64,000 nt of DNA from positions 1,814,008-1,878,007 of the forward strand of contig NZ_BMDI01000001.1 in the NCBI RefSeq assembly GCF_014635705.1, written 5' to 3'. Position numbers and translations under genes: made by a program. The notes under the pieces are model-generated. The model saw only the letters and a list, made by a program, of their open reading frames with translations, did not search any database and was not told the DNA's origin. Source of the stretch: Oxalicibacterium faecigallinarum (GTDB lineage Bacteria; Pseudomonadota; Gammaproteobacteria; Burkholderiales; Burkholderiaceae_D). Shown one piece after another: positions 8,723 through 38,623 of this stretch (the stretch's first letter is position 1; each line of letters begins with the position of its first letter).

Positions 8723-9043
8723 TCAGTGGGTACTGAAAAACTTGAGTCCAACAATTCCGCTGACGATCAGGCCAATACAGATCATGCGCGGCAAGGTCAC
8801 CGGCTCGCCAAACAGCACCATCCCCAGAATGACTGTCCCCACCGTCCCTATGCCGGTCCAGACGGCATAGGCTGTGCCCACCGGCAGGGTTTTCATCGCC
8901 AGCCCGAGCAAGACGACACTCACGACCATGGCGATGACCGTACCGATGCTCGGCCATAGACGCGTAAATCCATCGGTGTACTTCAAGCCAATTGCCCATA
9001 CGGTTTCAAACACACCTGCTACCAGCAAAACAAGCCAAGCCAT
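8723..9043 (-). CDS. sugE: SMR-family guanidinium exporter SugE/Gdx
   Basis: A 106-residue four-helix small multidrug resistance protein. The segment [17 protein letters not shown] and the Glu in [15 protein letters not shown] match E. coli SugE (Gdx) closely; that clade exports guanidinium in exchange for protons. GAGGAG stands before ATG 9043. In many bacteria this gene is under a guanidine riboswitch, but I could not find one in the 250 bases upstream. It reads away from the two small RNA genes. Confidence 0.92.
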
Positions 9044-9279
9044 TACCGCTCCTCATGAAAACCGCATCACTTGCAGCATGGGATGAGACGTTCAATGCGC
9101 CAGCGATGTGCTTATATAACAACAAAATACGTCAAAAAATGAACGTGCAGCAACAAAACTGCTGATCAGACCACAAATTTTCATACTGGCAGATAAAGAG
9201 CGGGGACCGAGAGCAGAGGGAGAAAAAAGTATTGCCTTTCGTTATTCATTATTTCGATAACTGATATGACAAAAGGAAA

Positions 9280-9309
9280 TTGGCTTGTAAACAAGCTGAT
9301 CCCTATACT
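9280..9309 (+). promoter_or_regulatory. Promoter of small RNA copy 1, with palindrome in the spacer
   Basis: TTGGCT (9280-9285) and TATACT (9304-9309) are 18 bases apart, a good sigma-70 promoter. Between them lies GCTTGT-AA-ACAAGC (9283-9296), an inverted repeat overlapping the -35 end and spacer. The same arrangement is repeated in copy 2, so it is probably a regulator-binding site. Confidence 0.7.
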
Positions 9310-9315
9310 TCAGTT

Positions 9316-9377
9316 GTCTCCTCTATGTCTCCTCCTTTGATATAGATTTAGCCCGCTCCCAGAGCGGGCTTTTTTTT
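9316..9377 (+). ncRNA. Small RNA copy 1 with anti-Shine-Dalgarno motifs
   Basis: About 62 nucleotides from a predicted start near 9316 to a strong intrinsic terminator. The RNA has CUCCUC (9318-9323) and CUCCUCC followed by UUU (9329-9338), both complementary to Shine-Dalgarno sequences and similar to the 3' end of 16S rRNA. There is no open reading frame. A second copy lies about 206 bases downstream with nearly identical sequence from the -35 box to the terminator. This resembles the CUCCUCCC-motif (cuckoo/CcsR) RNAs and the toxic small RNA described in Betaproteobacteria; the family match is from memory. Exact ends are estimates. Confidence 0.72.
9350..9377 (+). terminator. Intrinsic terminator of small RNA copy 1
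   Basis: AGCCCGCTC (9350-9358), loop CCA, GAGCGGGCT (9362-9370), then a run of T. A 9-bp GC-rich stem with U tract. Confidence 0.9.
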
Positions 9378-9485
9378 GTTTGCAGTCTGACAGCGCGCTG
9401 GAAGCAGCATGTCAGCGCCTTGCTCAACCGGATTTGCGGAAATCGAGATATTCGAAATGTGAATATCGGATATCAGAAATGGAAA

Positions 9486-9515
9486 TTGGCTTGTAAACAA
9501 GCCCGTCCCTATACT
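9486..9515 (+). promoter_or_regulatory. Promoter of small RNA copy 2, with palindrome in the spacer
   Basis: TTGGCT (9486-9491), 18-base spacer and TATACT (9510-9515). The spacer palindrome here is longer, GGCTTGT-AA-ACAAGCC (9488-9503): both arms gained one matching base relative to copy 1, which supports selection on the dyad itself. Confidence 0.7.
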
Positions 9516-9521
9516 TCAGTT

Positions 9522-9584
9522 GTCTCCTCTATGTCTCCTCCTTTGATATAGATTCAGCCCGCTCTCGAAAGCGGGCTTTTTTTT
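9522..9584 (+). ncRNA. Small RNA copy 2 with anti-Shine-Dalgarno motifs
   Basis: Second copy of the small RNA gene, with CUCCUC at 9524-9529 and CUCCUCC at 9535-9541. The sequence is the same as copy 1 through the C/U-rich part; differences lie in the terminator loop. Its terminator stem AGCCCGCT / AGCGGGCT spans 9556-9577. A separate promoter for each copy suggests dosage or independent control rather than processing from one transcript. The DNA between the copies (9378-9485) is unrelated to the preceding spacer apart from short pieces next to the promoter. Confidence 0.72.
9556..9584 (+). terminator. Intrinsic terminator of small RNA copy 2
   Basis: AGCCCGCT (9556-9563), six-base loop, AGCGGGCT (9570-9577) and eight T in total. 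It lies just beyond the end of the tag gene on the other strand. Confidence 0.88.
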
Positions 9585-9633: not shown

Positions 9634-10224
9634 CTACCGGCCTGTCTGTTTCTTTTTCGGTGATGTTTTGTGTAAATGGCAATCGCGCGCGTGGTCATTC
9701 ACCATGCCGATCGCCTGCATATACGCATAGACGATGGTCGATCCAACAAATTTGAAACCGCGTTTTGCCAAGTCCTTGGAGAGTCGATCTGACAATTCGG
9801 TTTTGGCGGGGGTATCCCAGGTCGACTCACGCGTGTTCAAAATCGGTTTGCCATCGACGTATGCCCATAAAAACGGATCGAGTCCGCCGATCTCATCGCG
9901 CAAGCGCAAGTAGGCCTGCGCATTGGTGATCGTTGCAGCCACTTTGAGCCGGTTGCGCACAATACCCGGATTAGCCAGCAACGCCGCCACTTTTTGTGTG
10001 TCATAGCGGGCAATCTTTTCTGCATCCCACTGATCGAACGCTTCCCGATAACTTTCACGCTTGTTGAGAATCGTCGACCAGCTCAGGCCCGCCTGTGCGC
10101 CTTCCAGATTCAGCAACTCGAATAACTGCGTTTCATCATGGCAAGGCACGCCCCATTCTTCATCGTGGTACCGAACATACAAAGGATTGGCGAGATTGAC
10201 CCAGGCACAGCGCGCGATCGTCAT
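9634..10224 (-). CDS. tag: DNA-3-methyladenine glycosylase I
   Basis: A 196-residue Tag-type glycosylase that removes 3-methyladenine from alkylated DNA. It starts with CAWVNLANPLYVRYHDEEWG; the Cys and His here, with HARDCHLH near residue 183, form the zinc site of the family. The base-pocket residues of QAGLSWSTILNKRE are present. Ribosome site AAGGGAAT stands before ATG 10224. It ends about 50 bases from the second small RNA terminator, facing it. Confidence 0.93.
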   Translation of the reverse strand: MTIARCAWVNLANPLYVRYHDEEWGVPCHDETQLFELLNLEGAQAGLSWSTILNKRESYREAFDQWDAEKIARYDTQKVAALLANPGIVRNRLKVAATITNAQAYLRLRDEIGGLDPFLWAYVDGKPILNTRESTWDTPAKTELSDRLSKDLAKRGFKFVGSTIVYAYMQAIGMVNDHARDCHLHKTSPKKKQTGR

Positions 10225-38280: not shown

Positions 38281-38365
38281 TGTTTGCTCACTCAATCGCG
38301 TTACGGACAGGCCGCGCGGGAATGAACAAAGAGTCTCTGGAGGGAAGAATTACCTTGAGTGACTT

Positions 38366-38451
38366 TTCGCTTCCCTACGCTGGCATTATCCAGGTCAGGT
38401 TCAAGGGTTTCATCTCACCCGAAGATTGCTCTTCAGGACCCCTAGCGTGGG
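38366..38451 (-). promoter_or_regulatory. TPP (THI-box) riboswitch
   Basis: Read on the minus strand, the region has the conserved pieces in order: TAGGGGT, a variable arm, GGGTGAGAT, AACCTGACCTGGATAATGCC and AGCGTAGGGA. These are the pyrimidine- and pyrophosphate-binding cores of the thiamine pyrophosphate riboswitch. About 85 bases separate it from the receptor start. In Proteobacteria such elements usually block translation when TPP is bound; no terminator is seen, so that mode is likely here. Confidence 0.95.
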
Positions 38452-38623
38452 CCGCATACTAACAGAAAAAAGCTGCGAATCAAGTGATTCCCGGCCTTTC
38501 GGCAGGGTTGGAATGTTGCGTCATGTCGACAGAGTCTGCGACAAAGACGGTAAAAAGTACGCTAAAACTTCAATGACGATCCTGTCTTTCCTCAATAAGA
38601 ACAGAGCGAATGCACATAAAAAA

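What the first reader, a model, noticed from the sequence alone, without database searches (positions are those of the whole stretch)
9280..9584. Twin small RNAs with double anti-Shine-Dalgarno motifs
Two nearly identical units of about 100 bases, each with its own sigma-70 promoter, C/U-rich body (CUCCUC and CUCCUCC) and intrinsic terminator, lie 206 bases apart. The body copies the anti-Shine-Dalgarno end of 16S rRNA, so these RNAs could bind ribosome sites of many messages. They resemble CUCCUCCC-motif RNAs and a toxic small RNA known from Betaproteobacteria (from memory); their job in this lineage is open.
Basis: partly seen in the sequence, partly recalled or inferred. Interest (0 to 1): 0.75.

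Follow-up and report, generated by a model that had tools for sequence, protein, structure and literature searches.

The report
Twin metabolic sRNAs under LysR control
Two near-identical copies of a known family of small regulatory RNAs sit side by side in this bacterium, and sequence evidence suggests that one conserved LysR-type regulator, encoded elsewhere beside a third copy, switches them on; the RNAs are known, the proposed switch is new.

Summary
Window 9315-9377 and 9521-9584 (+) are two members of Rfam RF02278, 'Betaproteobacteria toxic small RNA' (72.6 and 70.7 bits, cut-off 50), published as 'double-hairpin RNAs' (ncS27/bdhR1 of Burkholderia; S17 of Bordetella is a homologue). The RNAs are known in kind.

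New here: (1) the tandem pair is present in 13 of 13 genomes of the genus (Herminiimonas/Oxalicibacterium group). (2) Each copy has a conserved 36-base block at -76 with a dyad near -65, 64 bases before the -10 box. The same block, same spacing, precedes the operon divergent from one LysR-type gene about 123 kb away (26 of 30 LysR loci score above the rest of the window). A third RF02278-like RNA follows in 16 of those 30 loci. (3) Of 145 family genomes, 122 with the LysR gene average 6.6 RF02278 matches, 23 without it 1.0.

Best reading: LysR-activated sRNAs that repress selected metabolic mRNAs at their ribosome sites. Control by this LysR protein is inferred; nothing was measured. A rough window test for general ribosome-site binding was negative, so 'blocks many messages' lacks support here.

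The parts
9315..9377 (+). sRNA copy 1 (RF02278); start inferred from model and -10 box, not mapped
   Evidence: cmscan 72.6 bits, cut-off 50; own-genome search; fold z -6.63
9521..9584 (+). sRNA copy 2 (RF02278)
   Evidence: cmscan 70.7 bits; fold z -5.65
9322..9346 (+). copy 1 hairpin 1: 8-bp stem 9322-9329/9339-9346 with 9-nt loop UCCUCCUUU (9330-9338)
   Evidence: across 68 anchored heads (of 78 distinct) 383 of 408 cells of six pairs are standard pairs, best of 500 shuffles 79%
9528..9552 (+). copy 2 hairpin 1: stem 9528-9535/9545-9552, same loop
9350..9370 (+). intrinsic terminator of copy 1, T run to 9377
9556..9577 (+). intrinsic terminator of copy 2, T run to 9584
9280..9309 (+). promoter of copy 1: TTGGCT (9280-9285), 18-bp spacer, TATACT (9304-9309)
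   Evidence: conserved in the 26 genus copies
9486..9515 (+). promoter of copy 2: TTGGCT (9486-9491), 18-bp spacer, TATACT (9510-9515)
9240..9275 (+). conserved 36-bp block of copy 1, proposed LysR-type activator site, 64 bases before TATACT
   Evidence: matrix score 38.4; whole-genome pattern scans
9446..9481 (+). conserved 36-bp block of copy 2, proposed LysR-type activator site
   Evidence: matrix score 49.3
8723..9043 (-). neighbour: SugE, small multidrug resistance transporter
   Evidence: NCBIfam PRK11431 141.3 bits, cut-off 126; near the pair in 9 of 13 genus loci
9634..10224 (-). neighbour: DNA-3-methyladenine glycosylase I (tag) family
   Evidence: Pfam PF03352 260.8 bits; NCBIfam tag 223 bits, cut-off 232.5 just missed; near the pair in 13 of 13 genus loci

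Best explanation
The twins are two paralogous trans-acting sRNAs of family RF02278. Shown by sequence: two hairpins, an anti-Shine-Dalgarno loop, a C/U-rich 5' tail and an intrinsic terminator; a shared block at -76. Inferred: a LeuO/BsrA/DntR-like LysR-type activator, encoded about 123 kb away (G000:C1:1946410-1947366), binds the dyad near -65 in front of each twin and in front of its own divergent operon (a small ORF followed by a third RF02278-like RNA), and makes up for the poor -35 box. When its unknown signal is present the RNAs accumulate, and the 5' tail and loop pair with ribosome-site regions of a limited set of metabolic and transport mRNAs and repress them, as reported for relatives. 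The pair probably arose by tandem duplication at the base of the genus, presumably for dosage.
For: RF02278 membership. Pair in 13 of 13 genus genomes, spacing 206-228, near a SET-domain gene and tag in 13 of 13; one copy only, with the block, beside SET in three sister-lineage loci, L037, L041, L044. Block: 0.03-0.12 bits per base from -120 to -81, 0.56-1.16 from -80 to -31. Matrix from 26 twin promoters: leave-one-out 16.5-49.8; best other score in the window 2.1 among 127,060 positions; LysR-divergent promoter above that in 26 of 30 loci examined (30 of the 32 LysR+ genomes), 12 of 13 in the genus. Block to TATACT 64 bases in 24 of 26 twins (65 in 2) and in 23 of those 26 LysR promoters (63 in 3). 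At <=2 mismatches the own genome has four sites: two twins, the LysR promoter, and one inside a coding frame. Third sRNA by pattern in 16 of 30 LysR loci. 115 of 122 LysR+ genomes have >=2 matches, 4 of 23 LysR-. Published relatives: S17 represses an mRNA through Site 1, with compensatory mutations (PMC11722255, parts 1-3 of 8); ncS27 over-expression attenuates growth (PMC5688073, passages and Discussion).
Against: No binding or expression data for this lineage. The own LysR promoter scores 10.8 (3.8 with the first, misaligned matrix) against 38.4 and 49.3 for the twins; O. flavum (L167) scores -4.3, though best at the same place; L180, L186 and L190 also miss. Of 40 other copies 14 fall below the threshold, including all four scored second-locus copies of the genus, and only 17 of the 26 above it have the 64-base spacing. 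Four LysR-negative genomes have 2-6 matches; G134 has the LysR gene and no match; genus g11 has a 55-56% LysR relative and one match per genome. Co-occurrence is not corrected for phylogeny beyond a genus table. The general ribosome-site test was negative; no gene in 13 genomes has the 11-nt loop complement close before an ATG (reversed control also 0); one candidate target is not conserved.
Confidence: 0.7

Rival explanations
1. Same sRNAs, but the -76 block is bound by another transcription factor that also controls the operon beside the LysR gene; the LysR protein is not the regulator.
For: Nothing measured ties the LysR protein to the block; the block is also strong (22.8) before a 42-aa ORF in one genome, away from the LysR gene.
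Against: The block is a T-N11-A dyad near -65 in the gap between the LysR gene and its divergent operon, the usual LysR arrangement (established knowledge); RF02278 copy number goes with presence of this LysR gene.
Confidence: 0.2
2. The block is only a promoter part (UP element plus extended -35) inherited by duplication, with no regulator.
For: It is A+T-rich and abuts the -35 box; LysR-operon and twin promoters also share TATACT.
Against: A specific dyad kept at a fixed distance in loci whose LysR proteins outside the genus are 72-80% identical to the own one; not found in 13 of 13 S17-like copies of the same RNA family.
Confidence: 0.08
3. The RNAs are true toxins that shut down translation broadly by sequestering Shine-Dalgarno sequences.
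For: Family name and growth inhibition of E. coli, as cited in PMC4603805 and PMC5688073 (passages).
Against: No better than shuffled RNA against 49 window start regions; [quoted passage not shown] coli and only modestly impaired entry into stationary phase (PMC11722255); kept as a pair in 13 of 13 genomes. No search for an antitoxin was made.
Confidence: 0.07

Closest known systems
Rfam RF02278 / double-hairpin RNAs ncS03, ncS05, ncS27 (bdhR1), ncS62 of Burkholderia cenocepacia (PMC5688073, passages and Discussion)
   Same: Covariance-model match; two hairpins, C/U-rich free segments, terminator.
   Different: Here a tandem pair; that paper says its RNAs 'occur not in tandem'. It notes a common upstream motif in three homologues but the text seen names no regulator; its figure S3 was not seen, so whether it is the same block is unknown.
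S17 of Bordetella pertussis (PMC11722255, parts 1-3)
   Same: C/U-rich 5' tail and loop; two-mismatch homology to RF02278 bdhR1 by the authors' account.
   Different: S17S is cut from a 190-nt precursor by RNase E; the twins have a -10 box ending 6 bases before the RNA. S17-like copies lack the -76 block (0 of 13).
Herbaspirillum seropedicae Hsnc059/063/086/107 (PMC7011215, passages)
   Same: RF02278 members in a named betaproteobacterium, in the paper's set of 117 RNA-seq-supported sRNAs.
   Different: No regulator or tandem pair in the passages seen.
NmsRA/NmsRB sibling sRNAs of Neisseria meningitidis (PMC5362039, passages)
   Same: Tandem near-identical sRNAs acting on metabolic genes, with C/U-rich free segments (as told in PMC5688073).
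   Different: Tied to RelA and the stringent response; no LysR link in the passages. RF02278 relationship not tested here.
VtlR/LsrB - AbcR circuit of Alphaproteobacteria (PMC7486931, abstract and one section)
   Same: A LysR-type protein directly activates several sRNAs and a small protein gene, with few genomic sites.
   Different: Different RNA family; whether the LysR proteins are orthologous was not tested. Binding is shown there, inferred here.

Membership tests
RF02278 Betaproteobacteria toxic small RNA | Covariance score at or above gathering score 50 | tested here: met
   72.6 and 70.7 bits
RF02278 Betaproteobacteria toxic small RNA | Two hairpins, second a terminator; C/U-rich 5' tail and loop | tested here: met
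RF02278 Betaproteobacteria toxic small RNA | Expressed as a short RNA | not testable with these tools
   No transcript data for this lineage
RF02278 Betaproteobacteria toxic small RNA | Inhibits growth of E. coli when cloned | not testable with these tools
   Reported for Burkholderia members in passages seen
CUCCUCCC-motif (cuckoo) RNAs | CUCCUCCC motif (definition recalled) | tested here: not met
   Copies carry CUCCUC and CUCCUCC, not CUCCUCCC; no other sRNA family at gathering score; presence of a cuckoo model in Rfam not checked
LysR-controlled sRNA circuit (as VtlR-AbcR) | Shared site before the sRNAs and the LysR-linked operon | tested here: met
   26 of 30 LysR loci above the window background
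LysR-controlled sRNA circuit (as VtlR-AbcR) | Direct binding and loss of expression in the LysR mutant | not testable with these tools
   Needs gel shift and deletion
Type I toxin-antitoxin | Toxin peptide mRNA with antisense RNA | not tested
   The ORF list was cut at 60 aa, longer than the RNA could hold, so it says nothing

The most novel reading that the evidence does not exclude
One conserved LysR-type regulator is the master switch of the multicopy RF02278 sRNAs across the GTDB family of the window: it activates the twins, a third RF02278-like RNA in its own divergent operon, and many dispersed copies (up to 21 matches per genome), together with small proteins, a betaproteobacterial counterpart of the VtlR-AbcR circuit; the S17-like branch stands outside it.
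Probability: 0.55. Interest if true: 0.72.

Novelty: new variant of a known kind. Interest (0 to 1): 0.55.

Why it matters
RF02278 RNAs are common in the sampled family (126 of 145 genomes over cut-off), yet the 2017 Burkholderia study says that what regulates accumulation of its sRNAs is unknown (PMC5688073), and the S17 study postulates a repression whose agent is not named in the parts read (PMC11722255). The proposed regulator, site and spacing make that question testable with one deletion and one gel shift in a harmless environmental genus, and would explain how up to about 20 near-redundant sRNAs can be switched together.

Tried and rejected
Dyad GCTTGTaaACAAGC between -35 and -10 as an operator: rejected, not kept in relatives. 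Cuckoo/CUCCUCCC family: no support. General anti-Shine-Dalgarno blocking: negative in a rough test whose ORF starts (first ATG) may be wrong.

Target prediction: full loop complement AAAGGAGGAGA shortly before ATG, 0 of 13 genomes, reversed control also 0. AGAGGAGACA before ATG, 17 rows in 7 of 13 genomes, six of them the sRNA loci themselves, reversed control 6; none in the own genome. GAGGAGACA before ATG, 61 rows in 12 of 13 genomes against 9 for the reversed control; at least 13 rows are sRNA loci and one gene is counted twice, and GAGGAG is itself Shine-Dalgarno-like. In the own genome that gives three genes: a class V aminotransferase (best NCBIfam BhcA, 381.5 bits, cut-off 650 not met, scored on 330 of 407 residues), a glyoxylate-reductase-like dehydrogenase (347.8, cut-off 455 not met) and a protein without NCBIfam hit. 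Of 12 orthologues of the dehydrogenase 11 could be read and 3 keep GGAGAC; a lead only. A FAH-family protein recurs in 5 genomes. A NahR-type site resemblance was from memory and not confirmed.

Rows dropped: of 92 loci given to the promoter analysis (L001-L032, L047-L106) 18 gave no row by my regular expression; the 86 distinct rows were 26 twins, 40 others, 13 S17-like and 7 third-class RNAs, the last 7 not scored there. A fourth batch of 20 regions was listed but not fetched. Of 36 LysR matches, 30 had loci and were scored. L036 has one copy but its stretch ends 110 bases upstream of it, so it is not counted as single.

Full report
What is there. Window 9240-9584 holds two near-identical units on the + strand. 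Each is a conserved 36-bp block (9240-9275; 9446-9481), a sigma-70-like promoter with poor -35 and good -10 (TTGGCT-18-TATACT), a 63-64-nt sRNA (9315-9377; 9521-9584) and an intrinsic terminator. Both RNAs match Rfam RF02278 well above cut-off; the only other match in the window at gathering scores is a TPP riboswitch. Both fold as two hairpins with z -6.63 and -5.65. Of 78 distinct heads, 68 could be anchored; in these hairpin 1 keeps standard pairs in 383 of 408 cells (shuffled partners: mean 76%, best of 500 79%), with several pairs changed on both sides. The heads were picked by a regular expression that demands GTCTCC and a later TCC, so conservation of those motifs is not independent evidence; the pairing is.

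Where. The own genome (3.3 Mb) has three RF02278 matches, the twins and a third of 31.6 bits, below cut-off. An exact 34-mer of the RNA occurs in 14 stretches of named genomes, among them Oxalicibacterium solurbis, O. flavum, Herminiimonas fonticola, H. contaminans and Lacisediminimonas profundi; contig lengths equal those of several genus genomes, so the window is from the Herminiimonas/Oxalicibacterium group. All 13 of 13 genomes of the genus carry the pair, 206-228 bases apart. A SET-domain gene and tag lie near it in 13 of 13 and sugE in 9 of 13. In three sister-lineage loci (L037, L041, L044) one copy with the same block lies beside SET (in L041 between SET and tag) and no second copy was found by the same pattern. 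A tandem duplication at the base of the genus is the simplest account. Tandem or clustered copies exist elsewhere too: three with a 185-bp period in G026, six in 16 kb in G017.

The upstream block. Aligned on the RNA start, 26 twin promoters show 0.03-0.12 bits per base from -120 to -81, 0.56-1.16 from -80 to -31, a dip in the spacer (0.33) and 0.86-1.42 around the -10. The core is TATTC-N7-GAATATC-N-GATAT, a T-N11-A dyad centred near -65, the classical place and form of a LysR-type activator site (established knowledge). S17-like copies lack it (0 of 13 above threshold; S17 itself is cut from a longer RNA). Of 40 other copies 26 are above threshold and 36 have their best score at -76 or -77; 17 of the 26 have the 64-base spacing to a TATACT-like box. 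The 40 include four second-locus copies of the same genus, all below threshold.

The LysR gene. A whole-genome pattern scan of the genus found, besides the twins, sites about 620 bases upstream of a third-class RF02278 copy in two genomes (G006, G010). There a LysR-type gene (own genome C1:1946410-1947366; L153:3911-4870) is divergent from a small ORF, which is followed by that third RNA. The protein has LysR HTH and substrate domains; the best NCBIfam model is BsrA (208.9 bits, cut-off 480 not met), then LeuO (156.8, cut-off 262 not met); the closest solved proteins by sequence are LysR-type regulators of the 1UTH/5AE5 group, DntR by recall. A matrix made only from the 26 twin promoters scores the LysR-divergent promoter above every other place in the window (2.1 among 127,060 positions) in 26 of 30 loci, 12 of 13 in the genus; the 30 are those of 36 matches that were given loci. 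The own LysR promoter scores 10.8, the twins 38.4 and 49.3. The distance from block to TATACT is 64 bases in 24 of 26 twins and in 23 of those 26 LysR promoters. In 526,060 positions of 27 loci and the window, 71 exceed 2.1: 52 near a twin-type RNA, 10 at the LysR promoter (either strand), 9 elsewhere. With up to 2 mismatches the own genome has four sites: two twins, the LysR promoter, and C2:216317, which lies in an open frame of at least 279 codons. A third RNA of the RF02278 type, by pattern, lies within 1.5 kb of the LysR gene in 16 of 30 loci (a loose match in L183 not counted).

Co-occurrence. In 145 genomes of the GTDB family, 122 with the LysR gene (E <= 1e-100) average 6.6 RF02278 matches (E <= 0.001) and 115 have two or more; 23 without it average 1.0 and 4 have two or more (6, 4, 2, 2). 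Fisher p is 1.7e-14 by genome and 7e-7 by genus (41 of 44 genera agree, 3 do not). Two of the four exceptions, G072 and G081, have sister genomes with the gene and are 95% and 89% complete, so an assembly gap is possible; G069 and G108 are not so explained. G134 has the gene and no match. Outside this family none of 24 sampled genomes has the gene at that threshold. Genomes are not independent; the genus table is only a partial correction.

Function. Published work on relatives gives the action: S17 represses an mRNA through Site 1, shown with compensatory mutations, and 70 of 91 genes up in the deletion (92 in the abstract) have matches near their ribosome sites; two of the further four reporter candidates showed no effect (PMC11722255, parts 1-3 of 8 read). 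Burkholderia ncS27 attenuates growth when over-expressed, and ncS03, ncS05 and ncS27 rise in biofilm and glucose medium (PMC5688073, passages and Discussion). A review reports that ncS27 affects phenylalanine and tyrosine catabolism and carbohydrate transport genes (PMC10987360, passages). Here, own-genome targets could not be fixed, and general binding to ribosome sites was not seen, which fits a seed-limited set better than a broad toxin.

Novelty. The RNA family is known. Searches for RF02278 (4 papers), for LysR with double-hairpin or sRNA-promoter terms, for VtlR/AbcR2/DUF1127, and for LysR-type with Oxalobacteraceae terms listed no paper whose title or abstract start ties a LysR regulator to this family; in two reviews looked into, LysR is absent (PMC10987360) or appears as the target of another sRNA, ncS11 (PMC6321483). 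Only open-licence papers are held; Kimelman 2012 and Sass 2019 were not read. The closest circuit is VtlR-AbcR/VrsA of Agrobacterium, where a LysR protein directly controls sRNAs and a small protein gene (PMC7486931, abstract and one section).

Judgement. Observation confirmed; RNA identity known (about 0.97); control by the named LysR protein likely but inferred (about 0.7); action on selected mRNAs likely by homology (about 0.8).

Noticed in passing
window 38355-38453 (-): TPP riboswitch, 64.1 bits, cut-off 54.3.
   Followed up: no
L153:3481-3759 (-) and the same place in other LysR loci: Small ORF divergent from the LysR gene; in several species it is longer and repeats a motif like ALNxKANxIAQxxPxLAAxLR. 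The own version had no Pfam or NCBIfam hit, a second version (G007) no Pfam hit.
   Followed up: partly
L161:675 (-), ORF L161:566-438 (-): Strong copy of the block (22.8) before a 42-aa ORF in genome G003, perhaps a further small-protein member of the regulon.
   Followed up: partly
G017:C113:125971-141581; G026:C1:961093-961529: Clusters of RF02278 matches: six in 16 kb (one below cut-off), and a triple tandem with 185-bp period.
   Followed up: no
G134: A 1.7-Mb genome keeps the LysR gene but has no RF02278 match.
   Followed up: no
window 5767 (+): Start region of a CheW-like ORF (name from memory) has the strongest predicted duplex with the sRNA among the window ORFs examined (-26.8 kcal/mol).
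   Followed up: no
genus genomes, further locus (e.g. L047, L048, L050, L052): A further RF02278 match of 43.7-61.3 bits in 9 of 13 genus genomes, none in the window's own genome; taken as one locus without a synteny test. The four copies scored lack a good -76 block.
   Followed up: partly
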